Below, one piece after another: positions 205-55,576 of a stretch of 64,000 nt of DNA (position 1 is its first letter; every line of letters begins with the position of its first letter). The translations under genes and the position numbers were made by a program. Below the pieces are notes generated by a model. The model ran no database searches. It was not told where the DNA came from and saw nothing but the letters and a program-made list of their open reading frames with translations. This stretch comes from Citrus sinensis (lineage: Eukaryota; Streptophyta; Magnoliopsida; Sapindales; Rutaceae), in contig NC_068558.1 in assembly GCF_022201045.2 (NCBI RefSeq), positions 1,240,001 through 1,304,000 of the forward strand, in the 5' to 3' direction.

Positions 205-392
205 TTGATTAAGCTGGGAGCTTTCTTCGGTCCACTTATGGGTGGCAATAGGATTTAATTAGCTGCTGACTCATTCATCCAAATACTGAGTAAAGGGTCG
301 AAATGGATACCCAGTAAATGAGTGAATGATGCGGGAGACAAATTGAATCTTAAGCTTCCTGTGCTTGGACTGAAGGGAGCTCCCATTGCTCG
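205..392 (+). ncRNA. MIR319: MIR319 microRNA precursor hairpin
   Basis: The 3' arm carries the miR319 core TTGGACTGAAGGGAGCTCCC at 365-384, with A as the next base. The 5' arm at 216-235 is its near-perfect complement (star strand). Between them a second conserved pair is seen: a 5' block with GACTCATTCATCCAAATAC at about 268-286 and a 3' block AGTGAATGATGCGGGAGACA at 321-340. That second duplex is typical of MIR319/MIR159 precursors, which are long and processed from loop to base, sometimes releasing an extra small RNA. miR319 guides cleavage of TCP transcription-factor mRNAs of the TCP4 group and, less strongly, some MYB mRNAs, and so controls leaf growth and maturation. The nearest protein gene is a glyoxalase about 5.6 kb away on the opposite strand, the same neighbour type as Arabidopsis MIR319b. 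The mature strand, star strand and inner duplex together make the call nearly certain; transcript ends cannot be seen. Confidence 0.96.
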
Positions 393-3300
393 CTAATCTT
401 ATCCATATTATAGTTTAATTATATCTTTATCTGTTTAATATTCTTTATTTTTAAATTACCTAGGCACTCTATAAATATATATGCTAGCTACTGAATAATT
501 ATGCAATTGTCATACTGAATTAGTAAAATACAGCTTTTACTTATCCACTGAATTTGTTTCATTCTTAATATATTTCGAGATCATAGCTCAACCCTTCCTG
601 TGGTATTATGTGAAAGATTATGCATGTTCTCAAAGTGCTATTGATTTTTTAAATTTGTTTATTTGAATAAATTGTATGTATATGTATTATTTTATGGTCT
701 TTTCTATTAATTAAATTGTTGAGCGGTCAAGATATTCTGGATAATTAATCATTATTTTATGTTCGATTTTTGGTTTGATTTTTATGGATGGAATTGATTG
801 CTAACCATTGTTTCGCTTTCTTGAGTGATTATTTGTGGGCAGCCTCAATCTTTGAAAATTAAGCCAGGGCTTTCGCCTTTAGGGTTTTTGTTATGTTTGT
901 CAAGCTGCTGCTGCTGCTGCTGCCGTTATTGTTAAAAAAGCTAGGCCTCCGCAGGGAGTTTAATTTACGCTCTACGACAACAACCTCCTTGGGTCTAGCT
1001 CTCTTGCTTGCAACAAGTTCCTAGGCCTAGACAGACATGTCTCTTCATCAGTCTCGGGGTTACAATTACCGATATATCCTCGCCCCATCGGTGCTTCATA
1101 TATATGTCTTTCTCTTCCCATCTATCTTTTTCCTTTTAAATTTGAAGATCGAGTACTGACTGTATTATTTATTACTTGCTTGGCAGTTGGCAACAATTAG
1201 GCTGCTGTGTTTTGCTCTGGTGCGTTTGCATGTGTGAATGAAAATATGAAAATGATCATCCACTGCCAAGTCTAGAAATAGATACAATATTAAAGTTGTA
1301 TCTGTTCATTACTGCGCCTGTCTAATTCTTGCGTTTGTTTGACGAGTCTGATTGCATGTACAGAGCCTTCAGCCAGAATCCATATATTGTACGTAACACA
1401 CGGTTTACACGAGTTTTTGAGTTGCAAAGCGGGCAGATTCGTGCTAAATCTCTTCTGTTGACTTCGCTTGTTATTAATAAGATTATCCCACAATTAGTAC
1501 CGGTGTCTTTCTGTACACTTCGATATGTCACATCACATTTTATATTTGAATGTTTACCTACCAAGTGAATTTACAAATAACTACATTTAGAATTAAATAA
1601 AGGACGATGCTTACTCTAAATAGTTTTAAAGTTGAGTATTAATTAGAGTGTAAATTACAGACACATACGCATAGTAATAAATAATAAAAAAAATATATTA
1701 TAATTTTGATTGTCTTAAAGTGAATCTAATATCATCGGACCCTTAAATAAAACAATTATCTTCCACTGACAATTTTTTAAGAGAATTCATGTTGGTGATC
1801 GAAAGAAAGTTTCTTTGAATTTTAGTTTCTTTTAATGTAATAGGGTCAATGCTGATGGATGGGCGTGACAAGCTACTTAATTTCACTCTTGCTAAAATTG
1901 AATGAAGAATATGTGATATGATCACATTAATTTTTTTAATGAAAATATTATTCCCGTTGACTCTCCATGAAACCCTAGCCTGACATATAGTTTTTAAGCT
2001 TAGTGCTTAATCCCAAAGTTAATTAATCCCTTAGTGCTTCCCCATTCTGATCGGTGATGAGGCATTGCTGGTGTTTTGGTTTTTGCTTTCCAAAAACGAA
2101 TCTCTGAAGACAGAAAAACAATTTTAATTATCCTACCACACGTATTTTGTTTTCTATCAGCTCTTTTTGATTATCTCTGCAAGCAAGCTCGCAAACACTA
2201 TGCTGAATATGGATACGACCAAGTCTCTGTCCACTTTTTTCAAAATCCAGCGGTTCTTTCAGTTTCTCGTGTCATGATTCATCGTTGCACCATCTTTAAA
2301 GAACATGAGTGCCATTGCTTTTTGTCCTTTTTGTTATATAAGTGTAGATTGATCATGGAATGAGGATTTTCCACGTGCTACCCTTTCTTCCTGTTCAGAC
2401 TTCTCTGTTCAAACACTTGGTACTCAATTAGATTAATGATCAAAGATTCAAGTAACAAGCGCTGTAAATTATATATGAGGATCATGCTTTATCTCTGGGG
2501 CCTTAATGTTCCAACCCATTTGGAAAAGATTTAATGTGACTTAAACTGAATTAATTTCTTAATCATACGCGTCGTGTCCATTCTCATCTAAACCTGAAGA
2601 CATGTAATATCCCGTTAACTGAGGGTTGTTCCTCTTTAGAAAAGGAAAAAAAAGGAAAAAAAAATGCAAATGAAAAATTAATTTCTTTGCTTGGCATACT
2701 AGCATGATGTGACAATCAGAAGATTTGTTGTTTACTTTTTCATTCATAAAACAACAAACCGTATCATCTTAATTTTTCAATTTTTTAAGACCTTTTAATA
2801 ATAACCAATACGCTCCTTGATACTATAATTTATAGTATTATCCTTATTTTTAAATCCACTTTATTGATATTTATTAGTAAATTAAAGAATCATATGAATG
2901 GAGATTGAAAAAAAAGCCAAAACTATGTTGCCACATAGTTTCGTACCCTCTTTTCTGTCTTTTTCAAGGTTAATTATAGTGGAGTCCATTTATTTGTTAA
3001 AAGAACAAAAAGCCTAAAAACTTTTATATTTTCACACATTAGTCCTACACCTAAAAATTTTCATTTGCAGTGATGCTTCTGGAAGCCACAATTTATTTTA
3101 GAAGCACCTTTCAAAGATGCCGACATGAATACAATACTCTGACATCGCAGACTTGTCAATTTAGGCAATATAAGTTTTTTTATTATTGCAATATATGTAG
3201 AGAAGAGAATGCATAATTTGTTAGAATTGAAGGAAAAGAAAAAAGAAATCCATTTCACTACCAAACTAAAAAATAAAAAATAAAAAATTTGTCATGGCCA

Positions 3301-6016: not shown

Positions 6017-6674
6017 TTAAGCCGGTTCATAGAGGCCTAACATGTGACCGTCAATACATCGCATAGCCGCCACCTGATCACAGTCAAATTATTTGATCAA
6101 TATCAAACATGAGAAAAAGTAGCTTTGAGCGAAAATGTCTTTTACTTTTACAGCAGCAATACCTTTCCGTGGATCTCATATTTGATGGAGCCATCTAATT
6201 CAGCCCCCAACGCCATTAATTTTGTCACTGCGCTGTTAATGTCAGTCACCGTGAACGATAACAGGGATGAGTTTCCATTCTGCACGACATGGTCACTGTA
6301 AAGAGAAACCCGCCATCTCCAATAAGAAATCTAATAGGCCATATTGGGAAAACCGAAGTGGTAGCTAGTTAAATGTCAAATAACTGGTATATACATTGAA
6401 TTTGCGGTAGAATTTTTTGAATTACTTTACTTGTAGATGCATCAAGTGCAGTGCGTGTAAAATGGTTCTTTTAGGCATATTATCGAACGTAAGAAAGGCA
6501 GTAAAGAAACCTGGGGGATTGCATGAGGGCGAGCTTCAGTGGACCGGATTGAAGTTCGGCCCAGCGAAGAGTGCACACATTGAGAGTGAAATCCAGACCC
6601 TCCGAGTAGAAGCGCGCAGCTTTTGGTACGTCCTTGTGCAGCTGCAGTATCCATCTAAACGACGCCGCTGCCAT
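6017..6674 (-). CDS. Glyoxalase/VOC-family protein, three exons
   Basis: A 117-residue protein of the vicinal-oxygen-chelate (glyoxalase/bleomycin-resistance) superfamily, like the small proteins of Arabidopsis At5g41650 and At1g64185. Exons on the minus strand are 6674-6511, 6295-6163 and 6073-6017. All introns are GT-AG, with phases 2 and 0. The protein starts MAAASFRWILQLHKDVPKAA, contains CTLRWAELQSGPLKLALMQS at about 34-53, continues in exon 2 with SFTVTDINSAV and ends GHMLGLYEPA. Full length matches the family. The start at 6674 is chosen because the frame stays open upstream to 6755 only through a (CT)n tract that would encode an Arg-Glu repeat. The substrate is unknown; family members include lactoylglutathione lyases, but a single short domain does not prove that activity. 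The next gene at 7244 is on the same strand, in the same order as in Arabidopsis. Confidence 0.9.
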
Positions 6675-6678
6675 CACC

Positions 6679-6704
6679 CTCTCTCTCTCTCTCTCTCTCT
6701 CTCT
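6679..6704. repeat. (CT)n microsatellite in the glyoxalase 5' leader
   Basis: About thirteen CT units begin 5 bp upstream of the preferred ATG of the glyoxalase gene. Read on the minus strand it is a GA tract, common in plant 5' leaders, and it keeps an upstream ATG in frame. Confidence 0.85.
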
Positions 6705-7243
6705 CACTTCATCTCGCTTATGAACCTTCGATGGCCTCGCACTTGACTTCACCAACGATCCCGAAAGCGAATGAAGAACCCTTATCCTAACCTAATTAAA
6801 CGAAACCCACTAGTTGTTAACAGGCCAACGGCCCATTTCCTGAAAGCTGGCTACAACGCACATACTCTCTAGCATTAAACCTCACGAGGAGCCCATGGCC
6901 TATGAACAAGCCTCTGCATATTCGGTCGAATTTTCTTCTCAGCAGATCACAAAATCGGAAACAATGACCAAAGGCTCATTAATTAATCAAAACTGAAGAG
7001 TACATCTCACAATTCATCCATTATGTATTCTATTAAAAAATTATTACACTAATTTACAGACTTAAAATACAAATTACAGAAAGACAAAAATAGAGCTGCA
7101 GTTAAAAGCACTGCAACATTCAAATGTATAAAGAACTCCGGCCAATATTCACATAACACATTCCCAAGTGCCGTAAGTACAAGGAGCTGATCCGATAAGC
7201 TTGATGGCAATCATCCCAACCAGTCGGCTGGTTTTTTCATAGC

Positions 7244-10200
7244 TCAAGAGGAACCTCTGAAAACTTTAAATCGCGAGCGTTGCCCTTTTGACCTTGCTTC
7301 CAGAAGCTTTGCTTTTAAAGTATTCTCCTTCGAGACAGGAGGCGCTTTTGTAGAGGATTCAGAAATGTCGATATCTGGAGGTGTGAGTTTCGACATCCAC
7401 TGGCGCACTGGACTGGCCTGATTCTTTCGTGTGGGATAACTGCAAGAGGCCCCACCACTGTCATTCTCAGGACGTATAGTCCCCGCTTCTGATAACAATA
7501 TATGATTTCTCATTAAATTATCAATCATATAGTTTGAGTTTGATCCGTGGACCTCATCGTGTTCCTTATTTTGTCCAGAGATGCTATGCTCAGTCTCTCC
7601 ACGGTTTTCAGGTTTGTGAGGAGTTATTTCAGGCGGTTCCCTTTCAACATCTTTCCCTGGTTCTGCATTCACCATCAGAGGCTCTTTATTACCATTACAT
7701 GACATAGCCCAAGCCATCTGTTCTTCAAACTTAACTTGCAAACCAGTTGGAGTTCGGTCCCTTGTTCTTTCACGGGACACATTATTTTTCTTTGTCTGAC
7801 TATGTTTCATTGCTTCATCAACACTATCATTCACAGCTTCATCTCTTTGTAATTTCAAGTCCGCATTTCTTGGTTTGTCTAGTTCAAAACAATTTGAATC
7901 ACTGCCTGCAGAATCCTCTTCATCACCAACAGCTTGAGGCGCACTCACAGCCTCATTTAGTGGGACAGATTCAAGTGAATTTCGCCTATCCCTTGGGATC
8001 GTATTATCAGTTCTCTTAGAAGCGGACATTCGTTTGGCCTGAAGGTATGCCTCAATTTCAAAGCCCAACTTGTCCACTATTGAATTCTTCTCAGAAAGAC
8101 CATACTGAGCTTCTTCTAGCTTCATCTGCATTCGTTCATCAAGCCATGATTCTGATATATGGAGAATCAAATGATCCTGCTCACCCTTCCCGGTCCAATT
8201 CTTGTCAGATTTCTGTTTCAGAGCATGCAGCTCCTGATCATAGTCTTTTATGCCAATAGCAAATTCATCACAAAGTTCTTCCAACAGCTTCCTCGATCTT
8301 CTCTCTCCTTCCAGCTCTCTCCAAGCATTAGAAAGAGTAGACTTAACCTCAGACAACTCCCGAGCCAACTTTCTGTGTAGACTCTCTGATCTTTTTCTTA
8401 ATTTTCTCTCATCCTCTAGCTCATCCCTCACAGACTGTACAGCCGCATGGATCCGATCTTGTTCTTTACTCTTCCTAATTAGTTTATCTTCCGCAATTTG
8501 CTTCATCAAATCATCCATTTCATGCCGATCTGCCTGTTGATCTCGAAGCAACTCTTTGATCTTGACGCGGGCATGATCTAGCTCTGTCTTTAAGGCTTTA
8601 ATTAATGATACATTGGAAGCATGCTGTTCCTCCAAGCTCCAGATTCGATTTAATACTTTTAAGAGTTCTGTAGACGTCTTAAGATTATATCGTGACTCAC
8701 CAACTCTTCCCTTAAAGTCTAAAGAACTGGTAGGAGTAACTGCAGCTGCAGGGTTATAAGGTGCCATCTGCAGTGAAAGAGCATGTGAAACTACACAGAA
8801 GGTTCAATAATCCTGAAGGATTTACTATCAATATAGTTTACAAGTATCTAATTATAGTATGTTGAGACTTCAATTGAGCACATGTTAAATTGGTCAGAAT
8901 AATGGAATTTGTGTATATGATATACAAACTGCCTGAAAGTCATTGTCAAGTGAAGCTGCTTCCACAGACAGTAAATTCTCACCAATAATTCACTATTAGA
9001 TACCATTTGTGATTTTTCTTGCAAGTCCAACGGTTCCATTGTTTTTTTTTTTTTTTAATGGAATTTGTGGGGTTTCATCATAAAAGTAAAAGAAAGGAAG
9101 GAGCGATAAAAGTTAGACGGCAGGGGAAGGTGACTGGCAAAAAGTGAAAAACAACTATCATTACCACTACAGCATAAGCTTATATGGGATTATGGGTTAA
9201 AACCTCAAGATGACAATGGATTTGTGCAAAATATTTTTATAAGTTTGAATTTATGTGTGAGTAATTCAATCAACAAGGTCATTGTTTTAACTTGGTCCTT
9301 ACTTGAGTAATTCAATCACCAAGGTCATTATTTTTAGTTGGTTCTCACTTCACTTCTCTGCCTATATAATGAGACAACGCAAAAACTAGGGGCACAAGCA
9401 AGCAGTAGGCAGTATAAGCCATTCCTAGTCCCATGCACCAAAAGTTTGGTCTAACCTCATCGCTGTCACTATTCCTCATACCTCTCAAAAATTGAATTCG
9501 AAGGTGTTGGCTAAAGCAAAAGGGCGCATGAAAATATGAAATTGTTCAAGTGACCAGAAAATTAATGGAAAAATAGTGAAACAAATGAAAATGGCTTACC
9601 TCCATGGAACTACCGTAACTTGCGGGAGATAGAGGCTGCAGGGCATGATTGTTTCTTTCGATTGCTCGGTGATGTTGAATCAGCGATTGAGCAATATGCC
9701 TCCTTAGACTGCTTGCACTCTCCGGCTGGTATAAGAAACAACAGAAAGATTAATGGCATAATTCCATTCTTCAGAGGATGGTCCGAGACATCACATGCAG
9801 AGTCTATAACCTGCATTGGGTTAAAGCAGTAGCAATTGGCATGGAAATCTCAGCATTCAATACATAGCATTAGCATCAAGAACACTTCTACAAACCCCAA
9901 TAGCGGAAAGAACCCACCAATTTATCAAGAGTGAGATCTTTATTCAGCGAATTATCTCAAGGAGCATGATGCACAACATAGAATAGCCAAAAGAATTTGT
10001 CCTAAAACCTCAGTAACTACAGGAACCACAAGAAAATCTAACAATTCTTTTTTTTTTTTTTGACAGAAAATCTAACAATTTTAAGCAAACAAAAAAATGG
10101 ATTAATATCAAATAAAATTTCTTCATGTTTAAGTATAATCTAGAACCTTGCAAATGAGTGGCAAGCCTTCTTATTGTTAAAGTTCTCTATTTACAAAAGA

Positions 10201-10850
10201 ATTAACTTGGAATCAGCCTGCTAGATATGGCATTTCTAAACAGCAGAAAGACGAAAGCAAATATTCATGATCACCACAAGTAATCACACAAATCAGAATC
10301 AATAAGCAAAACAGAAGTAAAAGGGACCCACAAACACTAATCCACGCCTAATCTAAACCCAACATAATCAGCAGAATTCAATTAACGCAGCAATCAGCGG
10401 GAGCATGAAATGAAATAAAAAAAAAAAATAGAAACAAAAACTCAAATCAACCAACTCATCGAAGCAAAACATTACCTGTTCAGGGGAGCTTGGAGAAGGA
10501 TCAGCCAAGAAATGAGACAAGTCAAGACCTTTATCCTTGTACTGGTGCTGGGAACGGTGATGGCGGCGGCGCATTTTAGAGTCGCTAGCACCATTGACAA
10601 CAACGCCCCGGTGCATTTTAGAGATGGGAAAGTAGTGATGAAACTCCCAGAGAGCGGCAGCTAATTTTCTAGCAGAAAGATGGGAGTTTTCTTTAATGAT
10701 GCTATCATGCGCCTCAGGAGGATGGCAGAGTCTCCAAGTAGACACTACTGGAGTAGTAGGGCCCCCTCTTTTGCCAACCAAGACCCCCCTCCTCAACTTT
10801 TCTCCCAAATTTTCCTCCTTTTCTGCTTCACTTTTTTCTTCCCTTTTCAT
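7244..10850 (-). CDS. Coiled-coil protein of the At5g41620/At1g64180 family
   Basis: A 674-residue protein in three minus-strand exons: 10850-10476 (125 codons), 9725-9600 (42 codons) and 8767-7244 (507 codons plus stop). Both introns are phase 0 with GT-AG ends. Exon 1 carries the family N-terminal block (GVLVGKRGGPTTPVVSTWRL, then SARKLAAALWEFHHYFP). Exon 2 gives SLRRHIAQSLIQHH. Exon 3 opens with a long charged coiled coil from about residue 185 to 360, including LLKVLNRIWSLEEQHASN and LLEELCDEFAIGIKDYDQEL, followed by a polar, low-complexity tail. Homologues are annotated only as USO1-like or intracellular-transport-like by coiled-coil similarity; BRANCHLESS TRICHOME belongs to a related group. 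The molecular role is unknown. No signal peptide or membrane segment is visible. The third exon alone looks like a complete frame starting at ATG 8767, but a perfect acceptor sits just before that ATG and the family block lies upstream, so the longer protein is preferred. Confidence 0.92.
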
Positions 10851-11903: not shown

Positions 11904-11934
<31 letters not shown>

Positions 11935-14956: not shown

Positions 14957-17900
14957 ATGGCTGCGGAATCGGCATGTCCCGCGCCCATGAAGGCTACATC
15001 AAACGGGGTCTTTCAAGGCGACAACCCTCTTGATTATGCGCTTCCTCTCGCCATTCTACAGATTTGCCTCGTCGTCTTGCTCACTCGTCTTCTCGCTTTT
15101 GTTTTGAGACCTCTTCGGCAGCCTCGTGTCATTGCTGAGATTGTTGTAAGTTGCGTTACTCCCAACTTTTTTTTTTTTTTCAACTTTATGATCTCCTTTA
15201 ATAAATGATTAAAATTTTCAATCTCTGCGTCATGCATAACATGATGTCTTCAGCTAGCCACGGTGTTTCATTAGGAGAATTTTTTATATTCGGCGGAATC
15301 TCATGTCAGCAAATATATTAGTGTGTGAACATGTACGAGGTGGCCGCTCCTGAGTAATTATTTCTTCAGGACCGTAAAATAAATAAATAAATAAAAGGTC
15401 CAAAGAGAAAATAAGTGCCTATAAAAGTGGTCTTGGTGGAGAATATTTTTAATTCAAGTTCACTTTCCACACTCCAATGATTAAAGGGGAAATAGAGAAT
15501 TAAAAGAACTGAATGTCCCAGAAAATTGCTTGAAAGCGGCTTTTGTCTTGATCGTTCTTACAAAGGCGGGCTGGCCTTTAGAGTTATCAACATGATGACA
15601 TGTGATACCAGCAGAACTAAGAAAAAATGGCATTTGATACCAGCACAACTAAGAGAAATCTAAATTTAACAGTTAATTCGTAATCCTCTTTAACATGAAT
15701 TAGGGACAGAGAAGATTCATAATCATGTGCTACAGAGCATTGATGCAATTGTTGTTGTTGATACTGCTTTTGCAGGGAGGAATACTGCTTGGCCCATCAG
15801 CTTTGGGCAGGAACAAAGACTTTCTAAAAGCTGTTTTCCCATCGAGAAGTCTCACGGTGTTGGATACTTTAGCCAACCTAGGCCTTCTCTTCTTTTTGTT
15901 TCTGGTAGGCTTGGAGATGGATCCAAAATCCATTCGCCGGGCTGGTAAGAAAGCTCTTAGCATAGCCCTTGGAGGAATTAGTCTCCCTTTTGCATTAGGA
16001 ATTGGGACATCATTTGCCCTTCGAGCCACAGTTTCTAAAGGTGTAGATCAAGCTCCATTCCTTATATTCATGGGGGTGGCTTTTTCTATCACTGCCTTTC
16101 CTGTCTTGGCTCGTATTTTAGCTGAACTCAAGCTTTTAACTACCGATGTCGGCCGAATGGCAATGTCAGCTGCAGCTGTTAATGATGTCGCTGCGTGGAT
16201 TCTACTGGCTCTTGCCGTCGCCCTTTCAGGAAGTGGGCGTTCTCCCCTAGTGTCATTATGGGTTTTATTGTGTGGGTGTGGTTTTGTCATAGGTTGTGTA
16301 GTCATTGTCACGCCTATCTTCAAATGGATGGAGAAGCGTTGCCCTGATGGTGAGCCTGTGAAAGAGCTGTATGTGTGTGTTACTCTATCAATTGTTTTGT
16401 TATCCGGCTTTGTCACTGATTCCATTGGAATTCATGCTCTCTTTGGTGCATTCATAACTGGAGTTCTAGTACCAAAGGAAGGGCCATTTGCCGGTGCTCT
16501 CGTAGAAAAAGTTGAGGATCTTGTATCCGGCCTTTTCCTTCCGTTGTACTTTGTTTCCAGCGGACTGAAGACCAATATAACCACTATTCAAGGGCTCCAA
16601 TCTTGGGGGTTCCTTGTTTTAGTTATAGTGACAGCATGTTTTGGAAAGATCGTTGGTACTGTAGCTATGTCTCTTGCTTGCAGAATTCCTTTCAAGGAGG
16701 CTCTAGCATTGGGGTTCTTGATGAATACTAAAGGGCTGGTGGAGCTTATTGTCCTCAACATTGGAAAAGACAGAAAGGTAAAATCATTTATTTATTATTT
16801 AATTTTTGGCTTGATTATTCGATTTTAATTCATTTTATGTAGCTGATTGATTTTTTCTTGTAGGTATTGAATGATCAAACGTTTGCTATCATGGTTTTGA
16901 TGGCTGTCTTCACAACATTTATAACGACGCCCTTAGTCATGGCAGTATATAAGCCAAATCAAAAAACAAGTAAAGTTGCTTACAAGCATAGAACAATTAA
17001 GAGAAAAGATCCAAACTCGGAGCTTCGAATTTTTGCTTGTTTCCATACTGCAAGTAACGTCCCCACAATGATTAATCTCATAGAGGCTTCGCGCGGGACT
17101 GAGAAAAAGGAAGGACTCTGTGTCTATGCAATGCACCTCATGGAGCTCTCCGAAAGGTCATCTGCAATACTAATGGTCCACAAGGCAAGAAAGAATGGAG
17201 TTCCATTTTGGAACAAGGGGAAGCGGTCAGATTGTGATCAAGTCGTTGTGGCTTTTGAGGCTTTCAGGCAGCTAAGCCGTGTGTTCATCCGGCCAATGAC
17301 AGCAATCTCAGCAATGCATGGCATGCACGAGGACATATGCAGTAGTGCTGAAAGGAAAAGAGCAGCAATGATAATTCTCCCATTTCACAAGCACCAGAGG
17401 TTTGATGGGGTACTTGAGACTACTAGAAGCGAATTTCGTTGGGTAAATAAGAGGGTTCTTGAGCATGCATCATGCTCAGTGGGCATATTAGTCGATCGTG
17501 GTCTTGGTGGAAGCACCCACGTAGCTGCAAGCAATGTTTCTTCAGTCATAACTGTCCTGTTCTTTGGTGGGAATGATGATCAAGAAGCCCTAGCTTATGG
17601 TGCACGCATGGCAGAACACCCTGGTATTAGTCTTAATGTGGTTCGCTTTCTGCCGAGTTCTGAGATTTCAGGGGAGATTGAAGCTGATACGAATGATGCA
17701 GAGAGTACAGGGGAATCAGCGGATGAAATCTTTCTTGCTGAAGTCAAGCAAAAGTTTAAAAATTTGGAGGCATTTAAATATGAAGAAAGATGGATAAAGA
17801 ATACTTCAGAAACTGTTGATGTGCTCGGGGAGTTCAATAAATGCCATTTGTTTTTGGTCGGTCGAATGCCGGTAAGTCGGGCAGCAGCAATGCTTAAAGT

Positions 17901-18078
17901 TAAGAGCGATTGCCCTGAATTGGGGCCTGTAGGCAGCTTGCTGATTTCGCCTGATTTCTCAACATCAGCATCAGTTTTGGTGGTGCAGCAATATGTCGGC
18001 CAAACACCTTCAAGTCCACTGCTTCCAGATAAGGTTGCAGTAATAGAGTCGCCAGAGCATGATACAGAATCTGGTTGA
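14957..18078 (+). CDS. Cation/H+ antiporter, CHX16-19 clade, copy 1
   Basis: An 801-residue CPA2-family monovalent cation/proton exchanger. Exons are 14957-15145 (63 codons), 15776-16777 (334 codons) and 16864-18078 (404 codons plus stop); both introns are phase 0. The start [20 protein letters not shown] matches the conserved N-terminus of AtCHX18-like proteins, whose usual length is about 800. The membrane domain spans roughly residues 30-430, with the ion-exchange Asn199-Asp200 in [11 protein letters not shown] and the conserved [20 protein letters not shown]. The remaining part, about 370 residues, is the soluble tail with universal-stress-like folds, ending in HDTESG. Clade members act at endomembranes (prevacuolar/Golgi) or plasma membrane in K+ and pH balance; substrate and location are inferred from the family. 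A second copy lies 3.5 kb downstream on the same strand. Nothing is broken. A start 21 bp upstream in frame uses a non-ATG codon and is unlikely. Confidence 0.95.
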
Positions 18079-25096: not shown

Positions 25097-25652
25097 ATGC
25101 TTCAGCTGAGCTGCAATCTCCACCGTCCATCTCAACCTCTGCTTCTTCCCCGCTACTATTTGTCACCCATTTCCTTTCCTATCAAGTATGTCATCTTTCT
25201 TTTCTCACCTATACTTGTTTTTAATTACTGATCACATTCGTCGAATAAAAACTAATTAAGTTTATTGTTATTATTATTATTATTGTTATTTTTGATGGTC
25301 TTTGTCAAACAAAAGCAGCCATGTAAAGTTCAATGTAAACAAAGAGTTTGTAAAGATTACAAAGATTTGGACAGCAATAGGAGCCAAGAAAGGCGGCGAT
25401 AGGAGCAGCGAAGAGGGTTCTAATAGTGAGAAATGGGTTCATGAAGGCTTCATTACTGAGTCACTTCCCAATGGTATGTTTCGTGTTCGGTTAGACAATG
25501 AAGATTTAATTCTTGGTTATATTTCTGGAAAGATTAGGCAAAACTTTATACGTGTATTGCCTGGGGATAGAGTTAGGGTTGAAGTTAGTCGTTATGATAC
25601 GAGCAAGGGGCGTATTATTTATAGACTTCGTAATAAAATTTCCAGTGATTAG
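25097..25652 (+). CDS. infA: Translation initiation factor IF-1, chloroplast, nuclear gene
   Basis: A 140-residue precursor in two exons, 25097-25185 and 25319-25652, intron phase 2. Exon 1 ([20 protein letters not shown]...) is a Ser/Leu/Pro-rich, acid-free leader typical of chloroplast transit peptides. Exon 2 carries the S1/OB-fold IF-1 domain at about residues 68-137, with [33 protein letters not shown] and [11 protein letters not shown], closely matching bacterial and plastid IF-1. IF-1 binds the A site of the 30S subunit and helps initiation on plastid ribosomes. In many angiosperms infA has moved from the plastid to the nucleus; the added targeting exon and intron show this is such a transferred, active-looking copy rather than a plastid insertion. 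The acceptor is a NAGNAG-type pair (AAGCAG), so one extra serine could be included. A transit cleavage site cannot be fixed by eye. Confidence 0.93.
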
Positions 25653-29866: not shown

Positions 29867-30450
<584 letters not shown>

Positions 30451-37050: not shown

Positions 37051-37605
37051 ATGGGTGCTAAAAGTTGCATAATTATTTTCTTCTTTATGGTCCTTGCTAC
37101 ATCTTCTCCGAGCATGGGCAGGAAAAAGCAGTACAAACCATGCAAGGAGCTATTGCTGTACTTCCATGATGTGATTTACAATGGCAAGAATAAAGAAAAT
37201 GCAACATCTGCGATTGTGGCAGCACCAGAAGGGGCAAATTTGACCATTCTAGCAGGTAATTTCCATTTCGGAAATATAGCAGTTTTTGATGATCCCATTA
37301 CGCTTGACAATAATTTTCACTCAAAGCCCGTTGGTAGGGCACAAGGGATGTACATTTACGATACCAAAAACACATACACATCCTGGTTAGGGTTTACGTT
37401 TGTTCTTAACAGCACAGACTATCAAGGAACCATAAATTTCATCGGAGCCGACCCGATTATGATCAAGACTAGAGACATTTCTGTGGTGGGTGGCACTGGA
37501 GATTTCTTCATGCACCGTGGTGTTGCTACTCTAATGACTGATGCATTTGAAGGGGATGTATATTTCCGGCTTCGCGTTGACATCAAATTCTATGAATGTT
37601 GGTGA
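37051..37605 (+). CDS. Dirigent protein, DRR206-type
   Basis: A complete intronless 184-residue dirigent protein. The signal peptide (residues 1 to about 22) is followed by the eight-stranded dirigent barrel. It shows FHD with Asp40, [24 protein letters not shown] with Asp134, TRD with Arg141, and [16 protein letters not shown]; these are the Asp/Arg positions implicated in substrate handling in AtDIR6 and PsDRR206. Cys31 and Cys183 can form the usual disulfide. N-glycosylation sites are at Asn50, Asn63 and Asn120. It resembles pea DRR206 ((+)-pinoresinol type) more than AtDIR6: [19 protein letters not shown] and the KFYECW end. The protein is secreted and guides regio- and stereo-selective coupling of monolignol radicals made by laccases or peroxidases. 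The enantiomer is inferred from resemblance only. It is flanked by the solo LTR upstream and decayed copies downstream. Confidence 0.95.
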
Positions 37606-39312: not shown

Positions 39313-40023
39313 CGGTTTATTGAGCCTCACTGGCTTGGTGGATTTGCTCTCTTTTGATCGGATTGGTGGCATGGACACTCTTATTGCTTCTTATATAGTT
39401 CACGTAAGTCCTATAACAATTGTCTTTATCTATCTATCTATACACATACCAATTTTTCTACATATTGGTCAATCTTTCTACATATTGGTGAATTTAAAAA
39501 TAAAAGGAAATTAATATTCAAGGATTCTGTTGTTGACCCCAGTAAATGATAAAAAAGGAACTTGATAATTTTTTTTTGAAGATTTGAAATTTTTGATTGG
39601 AATACGAAATTACACTTACGAAATATAGATCAAATCCTTATCTCTTATTTTTATTTGAACTCATGTAACACTAAATTGTTGGTTTTTATTATTATTCAAA
39701 CTCAGATATCCATAGACTTAAAGAACATTCATGACCAAATTAACTCTAGATTATTTCCATTCATATTACTATCAATTATAAGATAGAAAATAATAACATT
39801 TGTATTAAAATAATATTATTGATAACTAAATAATTTTTCTAAAAATTCTATTGAAATAAGAACCTCTACACATCTCAAAATTTATTTCAAAATATTCATC
39901 TGACATATTCATCAAATGGAAGATGATTTTGACAATTTCAAAAATAATTTATTGTATTATCTTTTTGTGAACTTTATGAGTACAACCTCATTTGGAATGA
40001 ATTTGTTTAGATAAATGTAGAAA

Positions 40024-40690
40024 TGTGTCACACAAATTGTAGAAACCAAATCAATCACCAAGACCAACTTGGAACCCCCAAGACCCACTCTATGAAACTT
40101 GATCTTGATCTGGAATTAATCACTAAACTAAGCTTTTACAAGAAACACGAATAAGCACTCGAAACCAACCACACAATCAAAGAAAATCAGATCACACACT
40201 TGCACTAATGATTATAGTGGTTCGGCCAATTTCTTGCCTACATCCACTGTGGAAAACAAAGCAAACTTTTTACTGATTTCAGAGAACAAGTTACAAATCT
40301 GAAGAGTACATGCAAATGAACCGATACCCTTAACAACAGATCCTATGACCTTTTATACTCCACTCTGACCAATCCGAAAGAACCCCAAGAAGTCAGTTCA
40401 CGCTCCTGGGTTTCCAGCCAAGAAGATCTCCAGCTGCTTCCCGCGTGATCTAACGGAAAAACAACTTCTTGAATTTGCTTTGGGACACTTGTCAAATGTT
40501 CACGTAATCTGTTGATTGAAACGCAGAGATGGTTGTCGTTTGAGTTAGTGAAACATGTGACGCATCACGTGCATTACTAACGAATCCAGCCGACATATCG
40601 TTTGTATCAATCAGCTGTTCTAAACTCCAATGCTTGACATGTCGTTTATCCTTGCTGACAAACAGATGACGTGTCATACATATCCCCGAG
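40024..40690. repeat. Possible LTR-like remnant
   Basis: The stretch contains TAGTGGTTCGGCC followed by CCTACATCCAC near 40216-40250, wording frequent near the ends of plant LTRs. It is less AT-rich than its flanks. Clear ends or target duplications are not found, so it is either an old element or another decayed repeat. Confidence 0.3.
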
Positions 40691-40755
40691 ATCAGATTTG
40701 AGCTTCATAATTCCAATACTAATAAAAATAAAAAAGAAAAAAAGAAGCTTTTAAT

Positions 40756-40840
40756 GGGTCCATTTAAATAACAACTTCACCTACCATAAATAATATTAAA
40801 ATCAATTTTCAGTAGCAACAACCAAAATCGAACAGGGTGT
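40756..40840 (+). repeat. Fragment duplicated from about 34556-34650
   Basis: TGGGTCC, AACAACT, CACCTACCA and CAATTTTCAGTAGCA occur in the same order and spacing in both places. This indicates an old duplication within the dirigent cluster, or two copies of an unnamed repeat. Confidence 0.55.
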
Positions 40841-41219
40841 CGTAAAAAAAAATGAAAATTTCATATTGGTTCACTTTCCATGTTCTCATTATTTTTTATT
40901 TTTTCGAAAGAGAATAGAATCCAAAAGTTGAAAAGTTGAACTTTATTTGAAGACAATCTACTTAATCCCTTTCCTAATGAAGGAGAAACATGGCCCTGCA
41001 GATTATCAACTTGCAATTCTTCAATGATTGCTTATAATTTACAGAGAGCACGCATTTCGTCAGTTTATGAGTTTGAGTTGGCAGAGAAAAGTAAGTATGT
41101 TACTATTAAATTCAAAGAAACAAGAGTCAGGACAGTCGTCACCTTAATCATGTGTAGTTTCCATGGATCCAAATAATTCTCATAACGTTAAATTCTGGTT
41201 TTGGTAATGTGTTTGTGTA

Positions 41220-41355
41220 GAATTTTTCAATGGCAAAATTCAACTTTCCTTTAATGCAACCAAACTCAAGACCTAACTTTTGACAAAGAATAATAATAAC
41301 AATAACCAGCCACGCGCTCTAACCAACTGAGGTGGATGCTAACCTCAACCCTTTT
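41220..41355 (-). repeat. tRNA-derived (SINE-like) fragment
   Basis: On the minus strand TCAGTTGGTTAGAGCGCG (41330-41313) matches a tRNA A box, and AGGTCTTGAGTTTGGTT (about 41275-41259) resembles a B box. They are spaced roughly as in a tRNA. No cloverleaf can be completed, so a tRNA-derived SINE or tRNA pseudogene is likely. Its 3' end is undefined. Confidence 0.5.
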
Positions 41356-42317
41356 TGAAATTTCAAGTGGTTCGGTGTCTGAAATGCTTGGATGTTTGCC
41401 ATCTTGCTGGTCAACTCCAAATTAATTGCATCATTTTCTTAAGCCGTCGACCTCTATTGAAGCAGTACTAATTACCTCTCACATGGTGGTCAGAAACCCA
41501 TATTGTAAATGTAATTTCATCACTTCAATTGGGGTTGTTGTCCGCAGGTGAAAAAACATGAAAGCTCAGGGATCAAAACATCATTACCTCATAGAATATT
41601 AATATCATCATTTAGAAGAATCTTACGTTTCTCTATCTATTGCAAGATTAGATCTACCAGCGTCCAGTGCCTTAATAAGATTGACATTTCGAATGTTAGG
41701 TTAATGGTTCTGGTTCTGGTAAAAATTAACTTGAGGTCCCAATTATGAGCAAATGAAATTTTGAGGGCACAAAAAAAAAAAAAAAAGTGAAAAAGTTGAA
41801 TATATATGGAACAGAACAATTCATTGTAATAAAATTGCCATTATGGTTAACGTCACTTTTCGTTTATAATAATTCTTGAGAGAGGATAAACATTTCATTG
41901 TCTATTTAGTTCAAGAATCCTAGCTAGTCATACCACGCACTTGTCTGATCAGTGGTGAATTCATATGAAGGAAAATAATTAAAATTGAACGCCTCGTTTA
42001 ATTTATCTGTTTCTTGATCATGATGCTATACATGTACATGGTTTCCAGAATCATGAACTCTGAAAGTATTAGCTATCAGTTGTGCAGGAATTCGGTTACC
42101 AAAACCTCTGGATCCACTTTGGTGTAGCAAATAATTAGTTTTAGTCGTAAGCATCAAGCTAACAAAATGTAGTTGTTCATCAATGGATAAGGCACGTTGC
42201 TTTTGTTAGAGCCACACCATTCACTAATAATTGATCCCTTTAAACCCAAGCTATGCAAGATGGTTAATGATTAATAAAATAAGAGCAATAATAATAAAAT
42301 AAACGACTACAAGGTCC

Positions 42318-42326
42318 TATATAAGG
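42318..42326 (+). promoter_or_regulatory. Dirigent copy 3 TATA box
   Basis: TATATAAGG lies 84 bp before the start codon at 42402, in a region that has a duplicate at 38770-39312. Confidence 0.6.
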
Positions 42327-42401
42327 CCATTAACTCAACGCAATCACATTTCATCCTTTGCAAAGTTTGGCAACCTCAATCATTCATATATTGATCTAGC
42401 A

Positions 42402-42962
42402 ATGGATGCTAAAACACTAATGCTAGCAATCTTTCTCCTCTTCCTGATCTCAGCATCCTCCGATGCACACACGCAAAAAATCCGAGCTCGAAAACCTTGT
42501 AAGCATTTAGTGTTTTACTTCCACGACGTTATTTACAATGGCAAAAACTCTCGCAATGCAACTTCAGCCATTGTTGGCTCACCAGTTTGGGGCAACAAGA
42601 CCACATTGGCTGGCCAAAGCCATTTTGGTGACTTAGTAGTGTTTGATGATCCCATTACACTTGACAACAATTTACATTCAACACCAGTTGGTCGAGCACA
42701 AGGGTTTTACATTTATGACAAGAAAGAAATTTTTACAGCTTGGCTTGGCTTCTCCTTTGTTTTCAATTCTACAGAGCATAAGGGAAGCATAAACTTTGCT
42801 GGGGCTGATCCTTTGATGAATAAGACTAGAGATGTTTCAGTGATTGGTGGCACTGGTGATTTTCTCATGGCTAGAGGAATTGCCACTTTGATGACTGATG
42901 CCTTTGAAGGAGAGGTTTATTTTCGGCTTCGAACTGATATTAAATTGTATGAATGTTGGTGA
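42402..42962 (+). CDS. Dirigent protein, DRR206-like
   Basis: A complete intronless 186-residue dirigent protein. The signal peptide ([20 protein letters not shown]) is followed by the barrel with Asp42 (FHD), [22 protein letters not shown], Asp136 (GADP), Arg143 (TRD) and [20 protein letters not shown]. Cys33 and Cys185 could form the usual disulfide. N-glycosylation sites are at Asn52, Asn65, Asn122 and Asn140. It ends KLYECW. It is closest to copy 2 at 37051 but differs in the loop after the first strands ([13 protein letters not shown] against [13 protein letters not shown]), a region near the substrate pocket, so product or partner could differ. It is secreted to the apoplast and directs coupling of phenoxy radicals. 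A decayed sister lies 2 kb downstream. No defect is seen. Confidence 0.95.
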
Positions 42963-43129
42963 CATTATTGATTTTGTGCCCTCTATAATTTTTTTTCACT
43001 TGGTGATGTACTTGTCTCTTTTCAAATCAATGTTTTTATTGTTCCACAAGGGGTGGTTTAATCAATTCATGAAGCTTTATATAAAATCATCCATGTTTGC
43101 CCGTGCTTATGTTATTGGTTTATCCAGAA

Positions 43130-43194
<65 letters not shown>

Positions 43195-49505: not shown

Positions 49506-52500
49506 ATGCGAAGCCTAACGCTCCCATGGAGCGGCCTGAAGGCACATTCGTTGCCTTCTTCAGCTTCATGTCCTAAAGCATCAAAATCTTGTGGGTCAAA
49601 GTTGTTTCCTTTCAACTCTCTCTGTAAGAACCAGACTTCAACTTCAAAAAAGCTCTCTCTTCGCAACCCATATCTCAATTTCTCTAGGTAACTCTAAAAT
49701 CTTTCTTCTTCTTCTTCTTTTCTATTTAAAAAAAAAAAAAAAACTAAGAACCCATTACAGAGAATTGTGCAGGGACCCGGGAGCTTCATGTGAAAACAGA
49801 AATGATGTTGACTGCAAGAATTGCAAAATGACTAGAGAGTCCGTCCACAATCTGGCTAATGATAGTGGTTTAATCAAGTTTGTGATGTTCTTTGGGTTGC
49901 TTACATTGCAAGGCTCCCAAACAGCTGTAGCTGCCGTTGATTTTGCCAGTGGATTGCAATCTTTTCCTTTTCTTGGGGACCTTGGTGATATTAGCAGAGG
50001 TTTTGCTTCAGTTAGGAAAATCTCCCTGTAACTTCTGCTATTGGCCCCTTATTATTATTATTTTTTTTTCAAATTTCGAGACAAAACTTGTATCTGCTTC
50101 ACTGCCATTCAAAATGCACCCCCACATTAAGAATTATTCTATGATTACACCAAATTTATGTCCAGTGATGTTTACTACATTAACCATACAGTTTTTGCGT
50201 ATAAAAATTCAGATATACTGTAACATTTGGTCTAGCATTCAACATCCTTAAGTAAGTTAGAAAATTTACTACATTTAAATCCAGTCACAAGTCATAGTAA
50301 TGTTGGTTACATTCTGATAAAGTATGCCCTGTTTATCCCTCTGTGACACTCACTCTTTGTTGCAGGCATTCTTGCTCATCTTCTTTTCCGAGCTGGGGGA
50401 CAAGACCTTTTTTATTGCAGTAAGAGTCGCAGTAGTATAATTACAACCTGTAACTGAGATTTTTAACACGATTCTACGAGTCTGATGGACCTATGTGTGT
50501 CCAAAACTGAGTATTTGTGCTTGTGAATTTGGGCCATGTTTCTTTCTCAATTTTAGAAAGTGAAATTTTTATAACTTTCTGTCAGAGTTTATCACTTGGT
50601 TCCTTTTCCAGACCCTAGTTACTGTTGATAGAAGTGGAACTGAAATTATTATTGTTGTTGTTTTTTCTTTTCTTTTCTTTTCTTTTTTTTGGTTCTGCTC
50701 CAATTGAGTGCATAAGAATACAATTATATGAAAAAAAAAAATAGATTACCAGTCAATGGACTTAGCAAATTTTAGAAAATCTTCTGAGTGAAATATTTTC
50801 CCCCAGTACCTTCTATTTTTCTTTAGAAGCATACATAAATATGCATATTTTTATGTGTATATGCACATGTATATACCCCTGAAGGTAAAATATTGAACCA
50901 AGTTCAATATATATAATATCAAACTGACTTTGTTATGGATTTATACTTATTGCGCAGGCACTTTTAGCTGCTAGAAATTCTGCTGCAACTGTTTTTGCCG
51001 GTACTTTTGGTGCACTTGCGTATGTTATTCTGCTCATGCATGGTGATTTTAGATGTCCTTTGCATTTTAAAATTTTTGTTGCTGAATCTCCTCATAGCTC
51101 TAAATCATGTATAATATGTTACTTCGAGTCATTTTGTGTGTTAAGAGTATCACTTTCCACGTTATTGGATACAGAAAAGTGATCCTGCATTTTGTTATTT
51201 GTTTGATTTTATTTTATTACCATGGGCATATTCTGATTTCTGTTACATTAAATAGAAGAATTTTCAATTGGTCAAAATTTTTGGCCAATACCTCGTAATT
51301 TGCTTTTACATTTTAGGGCCAAGAAGTCATGAAAAATAACCCAAACCTCTTTAGTTTGCCTCTGCTGATGCAGAACTGGAAATTTTATACCTTCAAAGTA
51401 ATAGTAGCATTTATCTACTGTGGCAGGGCAATGACTGTCATATCTGTCATTCTTGGACGAACATTTCACTATGTTGATGAAATCCTTCCCTTCAGGTAAT
51501 TTTCCCTTTGAATTTTTTCTTTATCTATTTTACTTAGGAGCAGTAAATGCAGTGGTTGTTAAACCAGTAGTGAATATATTCTTTTTTTTTTTTTAAGTGG
51601 TAAATATTTCATTAAATAAAACGCCAAAGATTACAGATGATATGTGAGGGAAAATCCTCGGGCCAAACTACAGGGTCTTAAAACTTAAAACTTGGCTTTA
51701 AGCAGCCTTGGCTCTAGGCCTAAGCTGAATATTAAAAAGATTCATATCTTTTATCACATTCCGAAACGTGAATCTCCGATAATACCCAGAAAATTTCGTT
51801 GGAGCTGCTTGCTTTACCATTCACCGTATTAACCACTTTTTGAGCATCCAATTCGATTATAAGAGGCAGCAACCAAGAATCTTTTCCCGATTGGATGCAA
51901 ATATTGATGCCTTCAGCTTCTGCAATCTCATCATTCCCATTGGATCTCATCATTTTAACTGCAACTGCCATTCGCTCCCCTATACGGTTTTTAACAACAG
52001 CACCTAGCCCAGTCAGATTATGTTGTTTACAATTTGCAGAATCTACATTCAATTTGAACCAACCATGCGGGGAAGGTGACCAAATCCTCCCATTCAAACC
52101 TGACTTGCTCTGTTGCTCAACTCACCGAGTTCCATAACAGGTCTAACCGACTTAAAGGACTCATAAACTGCATTAGCTTTATCTGCAACCTGCTGCACAT
52201 CTATTTGCTTTTTCCGAAACAAAGCTTCCCAAATTGATTACATCAACACAACCCCATGTTCAATCTCTATTTTAGTTAATGCTGATACACAATACTGCAA
52301 ATATTCCCAGACACCATATCCTTTTAAACATTTAATCAGCTCAGCCGATAGTTTCAAGCAATTATATATGTGGATCTACCTGTAAAACTGCTTCTTTGAA
52401 TCACGATGGACAATTTTAACTATCTATTTTTCTGTTCAACAATGAAATCTGTGATAAAATTCGTAAAGAGAAACTGTAATTGTCTAAATGTGATCCACAG

Positions 52501-55500
52501 AATTTTTCAGTTTTCTTAAGTGTTATCTTACTAACTTATGGAAAGTTGTAAACTACTTTTGATGGTATATTTTTGCAAAGCCAACTTCAGAAGGATCCCT
52601 AGATTTTCTTATTCCATAATTGTATCTTGGTCTTTCTAATCTAATATTTAGTTGGAAATATAAGGTGCATATCTGATATAATCAACTAATTCACAGGTTT
52701 GGTCAGACTGATCTGCCAATTGATGATATTGCTGCAGTTTGCCTTCTGGTAAATTTTTTTCTTACTGAACTGTATGCTAAAGCACATGCTATACCATATG
52801 TGCAATAACACTGTCACTGAGATTTTATGAAATTTGTTCTCAGTTGAAATAAGCAAACTACTAATAAAACTTAATCATCATAATTCAGGTCTATTTTGGG
52901 GTTTCAACATTGCTTGATGCTGCCTCCACTGATGGTCTAAAATCTGAGGATGAACAAAAAGAGGTGAAATTTAATTATCTGATCATATAAGATGTGAACT
53001 GCCATGACAAGCAAACGCTTATTTCGCTTCTCTTTTCTTCAGATTTACTGTTATGTTTTCCATCATTTTCTCTCATGGTATGAGCTAATCTGATTTAGGT
53101 TGCTACTTGTGTCTAATTAGGCAGAGCTAGCTGTTTCAGAATTTTCAGGAAATGGTGCTGGAATTATAGCTGCTGCTAGCACTATCATCAGCACTTTCAC
53201 CTTAGTTTTTGTTGCTGAGTGGGGTGACAAATCATTTTTCTCCACAATAGGTTAGTGTCCCAAGATTGAAACTTTTAAATACAATTTAACTTCTTGTCGA
53301 TAAGATCTTATAGGAATCATTTATCAGAAGACTGATCCTTCCTCTTTCGACAATTGTTCCTTTTTGGTTATTCTGGCATTATTACCAGCACTTGCAGCAG
53401 CCTCTTCGCCTCTTGGAGTCATTGGGGGAGCACTGGCTGGTCATGTTGTTGCAACTTTGGTAACTTCTTACTTCCACCAAAAACTACCTACCATTTGAGC
53501 AATAATTGCAAACATGTCATTATATTAAAGTTGCCTTTGGTTTTCAAAATGATTTCTAAAGTAGTGATTAATTTAAAAATTGCTAGCCCCGTAGGAGTTA
53601 GCAATTTGGGGGGCTAATGTGTGCTCAAGAGTAGCTCGGCTATACTTGGAGAATAACTCAGGTGGTCTCACAGAATACTTAGCGTAACTAAGGTAGCTCA
53701 GATAAGCTCATATGTGAAACAATCTCGACCTCAAATTGAAAAGGTAGTAAAATAAACATAAATATCAAGAACACACAATGTTTTTGTGATTCGGCATTCG
53801 CCCTACATCTACAGGACCAAGTTGTCACCAATCCACTATACAAATGAGAGATTATATGAAATATTATTTTATCTAATATGAACAAAATAAGTTAGATAGC
53901 TATATGGAGATGTTTAGTGTTGATGAAAATGAAGATGGTGAATAAAGATATGGAAAGTGATAATATGGTAGAGAAGATGATGAAGGTCGAGAATAGAAAA
54001 TGGCCTCCCAGTAATAGAGAAGTGGATGATGATCTAAAAGATGAGAGACCCCCAAATATGGGTGATTAAGACATTATATAGCAGAGGCTAGTGGTAAGGA
54101 GAGTGCATAAAAGTTAGGGTAGATGTCATTCTTAGATTAAAAGAAAAGAAAATTTTTAGGGCTATGTGTCGTGTATAGGGAAAAAGGACAAAAATATTCC
54201 TTTTATATTATGTTTATCCTTTGTTGTAAGTATCTTGATTTCTCCAACTTTGACCATTGATTTTCAAACCAATCCAATGTAGTAAATTCTTTCAAATAGC
54301 ATCTATATACTGCTCTAAGTATTATTCCTATTTTATCCTTGTAATTGTCAATGTATCCTTCATTTACTGGTCCAAAAATATCGTTCCAAATTTACCTCCA
54401 AGCAGCAGATAACTGTGCAAATATGATAAACTGTTAATCCTTCTCTTTTGTTCAAATCATTTTGCTAATTGTTTTACTGATTTTTTTTTTTATACAGCTT
54501 GCTGTGTTGGGAGGCTCTTTACTCGGGACATTCTTATCAGAGAAGGTATATTCAAACTTCAACCTCAGCCATTAGCCAAATCATCACTCCATGATATTTT
54601 TGTTAATGTAAATTTTTTGGGTTTCTCTAGGTTTTAACTTCATAATAATGGGTTAGAAAAGAGGATTAGGGATATAAGTCCACCCTCCATAGCTGAATTT
54701 CAGGAATTTTCTATCTTTCTACAAATTATATGGTTTAACATATTTAGCATGATCTGAATGATGTTTGCTCTACGATAGGACTTTAGGCATAAGCTTATCC
54801 TTCAATTCTTGGCATGCTCGCAAGTAATAGGCAGGTACATGCTTGAGGATATTTGCGATTGCCAAGAATTATTCTTGCCTACTTTATATTATTACAAGCA
54901 AAATTCTTCTCAAACACCTTTTTTCTAGCAGCATTCTCTCTTTCTGCCATTCCTTAATTTGATGATAAACTCGAGCCACTCATTAATTATTCTGAACGGA
55001 TATTTTCAAAATGTCTTTGTCGAGTTGGAAACATTAAGGTCATTCTCTGACGTCCGGAATCCAGTCAAAAGATGTTTATTTTGGAGGAAAAAAAATTTGT
55101 GAAAGTTTGAGTGGAACCATTAACGAATTATATAAGGAATCCTATCAGTAGATTTGTTCCTGGGTATAATTGGTCATATCTGAGCATGTAAAGTGGGCAA
55201 GATGATGGTATTTGTACCTTAAAAAGTTTCCTTGTATGGACCAACATGTACAGGCAACCACGTAAATTTGATCCCAGTTGGAATATCTGATCAGTGGACC
55301 AATTTGTGTGTTTTCTACATTTTCTTCTTTCCTTTCAATCCATCCACTCACTCACGGTTCTTTGATATAGTAATCTCTTAGAAAGTGTTTCCCATAGTGG
55401 CTTCTGGTAATAACTTGATCATGACAAAGTGTGTATCTTGATCTTAATCTTAAGCTTATGTCACACAGTGAGGATACTTGAAACTTGTTTTGTTTCTTTC

Positions 55501-55576
55501 CCAGGCAATTGCGTACATTGGAGGTGTTCTTTTTCTTTTCTTTGCCGCTGTGACTGTGATTGAGATAGTGAGTTAG
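49506..55576 (+). CDS. PAM71: GDT1-like protein 1 / PAM71-type chloroplast Mn2+/Ca2+ transporter
   Basis: A 350-residue UPF0016 (TMEM165/Gdt1) protein in eleven exons: 49506-49687, 49773-50010, 50366-50419, 50958-51019, 51427-51495, 52697-52748, 52889-52963, 53121-53250, 53389-53459, 54498-54545 and 55505-55576. All phases fit. Residues 1 to about 70 are Ser-rich and acid-poor (MRSLTLPWSGLKAHSLPSSA), a chloroplast transit peptide. Two family motifs E-x-G-D-K-(T/S) stand in the membrane: SELGDKTFF at 148-156 (Glu149, Asp152) and AEWGDKSFF at 276-284 (Glu277, Asp280). A variable loop (SEDEQKEAELAVSEFSG) separates the halves. Arabidopsis PAM71 (At1g64150) sits in thylakoids and supplies Mn2+ to photosystem II; a Ca2+/H+ role was also proposed. 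Length fits. The exon-2 acceptor is uncertain: AGs at 49748 and 49760 would add 8 or 4 residues in frame. Intron 5 holds a LINE fragment. Confidence 0.94.
51582..52370 (-). mobile_element. 5'-truncated LINE fragment in intron 5 of the PAM71-like gene
   Basis: On the minus strand an RNase H-like (RVT_3) frame of 121 codons (52097-51732) shows SPHGWFKLNVDSA, GLGAVVKNRIGERMAVAV, EIAEAEGIN and IIELDAQKVVNTV, so the Asp, Glu and Asp acid positions are present. This domain ends many plant L1-type LINEs. The 3' end lies at lower coordinates, with AATGAAATATTTACCACTT followed by a 13-base poly-A tail (T13 at 51582-51594 on the plus strand). Sequence beyond 52097 still resembles the upstream linker (KKQIDVQQVADKANAVYESF) with stops. 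The 5' end near 52370 and the target duplication are not resolved. It lies antisense to the host gene. Confidence 0.8.
53620..54180. repeat. Possible LTR-like remnant in intron 9 of the PAM71-like gene
   Basis: The stretch contains GTGATTCGGCATTCGCCCTA and CATCTACAGGACCAAG, wording similar to the ends of plant LTRs and to the sequence at 40.2 kb. Intron 9, over 1 kb long, is otherwise ordinary. Element ends are not definable. Confidence 0.3.

What the first reader, a model, noticed from the sequence alone, without database searches (positions are those of the whole stretch)
205..55576. One block unites three Arabidopsis segments: MIR319 - glyoxalase - coiled coil - CHX - dirigent - PAM71
From memory, Arabidopsis has MIR319b, glyoxalase, coiled coil and CHX18 near At5g41663-41610. 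It has PAM71, DIR5, CHX16, coiled coil and glyoxalase at At1g64150-64185, and DIR6, CHX17 and MIR319a at At4g23690-23713. The window has them all in one order, so it approximates the pre-duplication arrangement and explains how MIR319a and MIR319b separated.
Basis: partly seen in the sequence, partly recalled or inferred. Interest (0 to 1): 0.75.

Follow-up and report, generated by a model that had tools for sequence, protein, structure and literature searches.

The report
Conserved plant gene block, four Arabidopsis fragments
A stretch of an unidentified plant genome carries, in one row, neighbouring genes that in Arabidopsis appear split among at least four places by ancient genome duplications; this is ordinary conserved gene order, and two details, a chloroplast-derived gene and a broken dirigent gene, are worth following up.

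Summary
The row of genes is real and its coordinates are right: MIR319 hairpin (206-396), glyoxalase, coiled-coil gene, two CHX17-type antiporters, three dirigent genes and an 11-exon PAM71/GDT1 gene ending at 55576. Printed locus codes support MIR319a/b, CHX17 and DIR5/6; CHX16, CHX18 and PAM71 have printed codes with recalled names; coiled-coil and glyoxalase codes are recalled only. MIR319a and MIR319b then most likely separated at a duplication older than alpha; a 2011 paper already calls them distant and points to segmental duplication. The dirigent match is subtler: the window's AtDIR6-like copy ((-)-pinoresinol class) is frameshifted, while its two intact copies are of the opposite (+) class. 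No plant genome could be searched, so species, copy number and the 'pre-duplication' claim stay untested. Ordinary conserved synteny, modest interest. Boldest open reading: nuclear infA of Arabidopsis and this plant descends from one transfer.

The parts
206..396 (+). MIR319 hairpin (mature core TTGGACTGAAGGGAGCTCCC from 365)
   Evidence: Rfam RF00638, 147.1 bits; fold z -8.5; 19-base core found once
6017..6674 (-). small glyoxalase-fold protein, 3 exons (6511-6674, 6163-6295, 6017-6073), 117 aa
   Evidence: splice model; PF00903
7244..10850 (-). coiled-coil protein, 2 exons (10476-10850, 7244-8767), 632 aa
   Evidence: splice model; no Pfam hit for either exon; family by recall
14957..18078 (+). 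CHX17-type cation/H+ antiporter 1, 3 exons, 801 aa
21623..24463 (+). CHX17-type cation/H+ antiporter 2, 3 exons, 796 aa; 566 of 790 aligned residues identical to copy 1, Ks 1.39
25097..25652 (+). nuclear infA, chloroplast translation initiation factor IF-1: exon 1 25097-25185 (N-terminal extension; one of four candidate models, chosen for its donor site), exon 2 25319-25652
   Evidence: PF01176; PDB IF-1 chains; exon models
29879..30450 (+). dirigent copy 1, AtDIR6-like, frameshifted with a stop near 30089
   Evidence: class and tree
37051..37605 (+). dirigent copy 2, intact, DRR206-like
   Evidence: PF03018
42402..42962 (+). dirigent copy 3, intact, DRR206-like
   Evidence: PF03018; PDB 4rev 1.6e-72, 5lal 2.6e-59
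49506..55576 (+). PAM71/GDT1 family protein, 11 exons, 350 aa, ELGDKT and EWGDKS motifs
   Evidence: splice model; PF01169 twice; motif positions

Best explanation
The window is one unbroken copy of a conserved stretch of plant chromosome. In Arabidopsis, rounds of genome doubling made at least four copies of it, and each copy then lost a different subset of genes, so that the row survives only in pieces: PAM71-DIR5-CHX16 (At1g64), CHX18...MIR319b (At5g41), DIR6-CHX17-MIR319a (At4g23), and IF-1 with DIR12-14 (At4g11). Shown here: the gene content and order of the window and the class of each dirigent gene. From print: most of the Arabidopsis locus codes. Inferred: that the segments are descendants of the alpha and beta duplications (At1g64 with At5g41 and At4g11 with At4g23 as alpha pairs, recalled), so that MIR319a and MIR319b parted at the older event.
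For: All members lie in one order in the window. Printed codes for MIR319a/b, DIR5, 6, 12, 13, 14, AT1G64150/AT1G64170/AT4G23700/AT5G41610, IF-1 and RTN1/2/3 at At4g23630/At4g11220/At1g64090 fall in four places, three of which also carry a reticulon within about ten codes. In the window infA is followed, with no other gene found between, by the AtDIR6-like dirigent copy, as At4g11175 is by At4g11180 (DIR12), which a paper places in the (-) cluster. Chance of such neighbours is small (assumed family sizes). Li 2011: MIR319 copies far more distant than MIR159a/b, as a split older than alpha would predict.
Against: The only Arabidopsis sequence that could be aligned was AtDIR6 from the PDB, so orthology of MIR319, CHX, coiled coil, glyoxalase, infA and PAM71 is by family and position only. 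Codes for the coiled-coil and glyoxalase genes, At5g41600, the names behind three antiporter codes and the alpha/beta pairing are recalled. No reticulon, VHA-G, VHA-E, PGD or CRF motif was found in the window (one or two short motifs each, from memory, which an intron could hide).
Confidence: 0.82

Rival explanations
1. Three segments only; IF-1 next to dirigent genes at At4g11 is a coincidence or a separate translocation.
For: CHX, coiled coil, glyoxalase and MIR319 have no member known to me (recall) in the At4g11 segment.
Against: IF-1, three DIR-a genes and a reticulon lie together there, and the window joins IF-1 to the block; IF-1 beside a dirigent gene by chance 0.0028.
Confidence: 0.1
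2. The window is itself a derived, reassembled arrangement and the Arabidopsis pieces were never one row.
For: The window shows its own changes: two CHX genes, three dirigent genes, one frameshifted. No outgroup genome could be read.
Against: Each Arabidopsis piece overlaps another in at least one family (CHX in three, DIR in three; codes, two CHX names recalled), which one ancestral row explains most simply.
Confidence: 0.06
3. The block is held together by selection, for example shared regulation, not merely retained by descent.
For: Long retention of unrelated neighbours (inference; no call tests it).
Against: The genes have unrelated known roles (recalled), and Arabidopsis appears to have dispersed them.
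Confidence: 0.02

Closest known systems
Conserved microsynteny between single plant segments and fractionated Arabidopsis duplication blocks
   Same: One row of genes corresponds to several Arabidopsis segments, each with a different retained subset.
   Different: Nothing structural. One search for six names tied to the block returned one paper holding three of them, which holds neither MIR319 nor dirigent; that cannot show that the row is unpublished.
Nuclear infA (chloroplast IF-1) of Arabidopsis, At4g11175
   Same: IF-1 family; a dirigent gene next door (codes).
   Different: Sequences not compared; the window gene is modelled with one intron, whereas the nuclear gene of Viola is reported intronless (PMC8429499, passages).
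Pinoresinol-forming dirigent proteins AtDIR6 (PDB 5lal, (-)) and PsDRR206 (PDB 4rev, (+))
   Same: Copies 2 and 3 carry all 6 (+) residues and PsDRR206's loop length; copy 1 carries 5 of 6 (-) residues.
   Different: Copy 1 has Cys where AtDIR6 has Tyr118, and a frameshift; no activity is known for any copy.

Membership tests
MIR319 (Rfam MIR159/319) | long hairpin with miR319 on the 3' arm | tested here: met
   319 rather than 159 because the 319 core matches with 0 and the 159 core (recalled) with 2 mismatches
CHX17-type CPA2 antiporters | Na_H_Exchanger plus both CHX17 C-terminal domains | tested here: met
   both genes
CHX16/17/18 subgroup | grouping with AtCHX16-18 in a tree | not testable with these tools
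   no Arabidopsis CHX sequence at hand
PAM71 (GDT1 family) | two GDT1 repeats with E-x-G-D-K-[ST] | tested here: met
   closeness to PAM71 rather than other plant GDT1 members not tested
chloroplast IF-1, nuclear | IF-1 domain behind an added N-terminal extension | tested here: inconclusive
   domain met; exon 1 is one of four candidate models, targeting not tested
(+)-pinoresinol dirigent | Gly95, Leu113, Phe115, Phe117, Phe130, Ile/Leu161 (PsDRR206 numbering) and the longer beta1-beta2 loop | tested here: met
   copies 2 and 3, 6 of 6 residues each and the loop length of PsDRR206, six more than AtDIR6 (rules from PMC4340379); activity not tested
(-)-pinoresinol dirigent | Ala98, Phe116, Tyr118, Leu120, Ile133, Phe164 (AtDIR6 numbering) | tested here: inconclusive
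   copy 1, 5 of 6, Cys for Tyr118; reading frame broken
Arabidopsis alpha/beta duplication blocks | collinear anchor pairs with matching Ks | not testable with these tools
   no Arabidopsis genome held; locus codes only
pre-duplication single-copy segment | one copy per genome and the same order in outgroups | not testable with these tools
   no own genome

The most novel reading that the evidence does not exclude
The nuclear infA of Arabidopsis and of this plant come from one ancient transfer into the gap between CHX and a dirigent gene, before their lineages parted. If the plant is a fabid, or if soybean shares the site, this would overturn the view that rosid nuclear infA genes arose by independent transfers (Millen 2001, recalled; cited for 'multiple independent transfers' in PMC8429499). 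The species is unknown, so only the shared position is shown.
Probability: 0.4. Interest if true: 0.5.

Novelty: new member of a known kind. Interest (0 to 1): 0.3.

Why it matters
It gives a compact anchor for pairing four Arabidopsis segments, a positional test of when infA moved to the nucleus, and a locus where the two opposite-handed dirigent classes may have been lost in opposite directions: the Arabidopsis genes DIR5, DIR6 and DIR12 are placed with the (-) class in print, with DIR12 63% and 68% identical to the uncharacterised DIR13 and DIR14, while here the two intact copies carry (+)-class residues. None of this changes a general view of plant genome evolution; it makes two small questions testable.

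Tried and rejected
Own-genome search: none held. Exact 20-base miR319 scans of viral contigs and genome contigs: 0 matches each. CHX copy 2 exon 2 against viral contigs: 3 pattern matches, 0 confirmed. infA exon 2 against plasmids: 118 records, 0 covering 80% of the query; the 10 rows listed are bacterial. Further genes in the window: Pfam was run on a choice of ORFs, not on all; the only unexpected family was a reverse-transcriptase-like piece. A hexamer scan trained on seven of the models left 15 segments outside them: one is dirigent copy 1, one the reverse-transcriptase piece, two lie on the strand opposite infA exon 1, and 11 are short and unexplained; small genes may have been missed. 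Literature: 10 of 10 searches used; one search was wasted on a term that also matches 'infant'. Not held: Millen 2001, Sun 2015, Chanroj 2012 (DOI from memory), Maher 2006. PMC6947622 (passages) and PMC7349511 (passages) added nothing on gene order. I considered calling the dirigent genes simple DIR5/6 orthologues and dropped it. The dirigent tree used only the 3' part of copy 1 and seven sequences (window copies 1-3, 4rev, 5lal, 8th2, 6ooc; 6ood, also found, was left out). Ultrafast bootstrap for copy 1 with AtDIR6 was 93, a little under the usual 95; copies 2 and 3 with PsDRR206 against the rest had only 64. The loop-length rule could not be scored for copy 1, because its frameshift falls in that loop.

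Full report
What is there. The window is plant nuclear DNA of unknown species; no genome is held for it. From left to right I find a MIR319 hairpin at 206-396 on the + strand (Rfam RF00638, 147.1 bits; -82.9 kcal/mol, z -8.5, 0 of 200 shuffles as stable); a three-exon glyoxalase-fold gene at 6017-6674 on the - strand; a two-exon coiled-coil gene at 7244-10850 on the - strand with no Pfam family; two CHX17-type antiporter genes at 14957-18078 and 21623-24463 on the + strand; a nuclear infA gene for chloroplast IF-1 at 25097-25652 on the + strand (exon 1 is one of four candidates printed, chosen for its donor site); three dirigent genes on the + strand from 29879 to 42962; and an 11-exon PAM71/GDT1 gene at 49506-55576 on the + strand.

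What the Arabidopsis comparison shows. I had no Arabidopsis genome, only papers. In print are MIR319a At4g23713 and MIR319b At5g41663 (PMC5181588, passage); DIR5 At1g64160, DIR6 At4g23690, DIR12/13/14 At4g11180/190/210 (PMC8136895, sections 8 and 9 and passages); AT1G64150, AT1G64170, AT4G23700 and AT5G41610 in a table of antiporters (PMC12346106, passages), of which the passages name only AT4G23700, as CHX17, the other names being recalled; IF-1 At4g11175 (PMC7251690, passage); RTN1, 2, 3 at At4g23630, At4g11220, At1g64090 (PMC5797236, passage). Recalled only: At1g64180/185 and At5g41620/650 for the coiled-coil and glyoxalase genes, At5g41600, and the flanking PGD, VHA-E, CRF and WRKY pairs. 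Together these place the block in four Arabidopsis segments, not three. The fourth, At4g11175-11220, is tied to the window by infA, which here comes directly before the dirigent genes. A rough random-placement model, with assumed family sizes, makes such neighbours unlikely by chance. One or two short recalled motifs each for reticulon, VHA-G, VHA-E, PGD and CRF found nothing in the window.

What follows for MIR319. If At1g64 pairs with At5g41 and At4g11 with At4g23 at the alpha duplication (recalled pairs, inference), MIR319a and MIR319b lie in different pairs and parted earlier, probably at beta, each alpha partner having lost its copy. Li et al. 2011 (PMC3118147, passages) states that the three MIR319 genes are far more distant from one another than MIR159a and b, and that this agrees with an earlier inference from segmental duplications. 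So the claim is consistent with print and not new.

The dirigent genes. Over 119 aligned residues the 3' part of copy 1 is 69.7% identical to AtDIR6 and 50.4% to PsDRR206; copy 2 is 58.0% and 76.5%, copy 3 59.7% and 68.1%. Of the six residues that PMC4340379 (passages) lists as separating (+)- from (-)-pinoresinol formers, copies 2 and 3 have all six of the (+) kind and copy 1 five of six of the (-) kind, with Cys in place of Tyr118. Copies 2 and 3 also have the longer loop of PsDRR206; copy 1 could not be scored for it. Copy 1 joins AtDIR6 in a seven-sequence tree with ultrafast bootstrap 93; the grouping of copies 2 and 3 with PsDRR206 has only 64. Copy 1 is frameshifted, with a stop near 30089; an assembly error is not excluded. 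In Arabidopsis, DIR5 and DIR6 form (-)-pinoresinol, DIR12 is placed in the (-) cluster, and DIR12 is 63% and 68% identical to the uncharacterised DIR13 and DIR14. The simplest reading, an inference, is a mixed ancestral cluster from which the two lineages kept opposite classes.

infA. Papers describe loss of plastid infA in most rosids and nuclear copies in several species, with 'multiple independent transfers' credited to Millen 2001 (PMC8429499, PMC4579063, PMC4918201, passages; Millen itself not held). The shared place next to dirigent genes argues that Arabidopsis and this plant inherited one insertion. I could not compare the sequences, and the species is unknown, so how far back that reaches is open.

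Limits. The CHX copies differ by Ks 1.39 and the two intact dirigent copies by Ks 2.54, the latter close to saturation, so the tandem copies are old and the window is not a frozen ancestor. The term 'pre-duplication arrangement' needs an outgroup genome. The verdict is ordinary conserved synteny, well observed, with one segment missed and two follow-up questions.

Noticed in passing
25097-25652: Nuclear infA (chloroplast IF-1) between the CHX pair and the dirigent genes, not in the finding; modelled with one intron.
   Followed up: yes
29879-30450: Dirigent copy 1 is AtDIR6-like and frameshifted; the other two copies are of the opposite class.
   Followed up: yes
51735-52121: Reverse-transcriptase-like (RVT_3, 1.1e-10) piece on the - strand inside PAM71 intron 5.
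   Followed up: partly
35319-35388: Short 30-base tandem array, 2.3 copies, between dirigent copies 1 and 2.
   Followed up: no
6679-6705 and 43129-43194: CT run just upstream of the glyoxalase start, and an ATAC/AG repeat just downstream of dirigent copy 3.
   Followed up: no
56000-64000: Right of PAM71 no family was found for five ORFs given to Pfam; the hexamer scan left one short segment there, 63023-63079. Other ORFs were not searched.
   Followed up: partly
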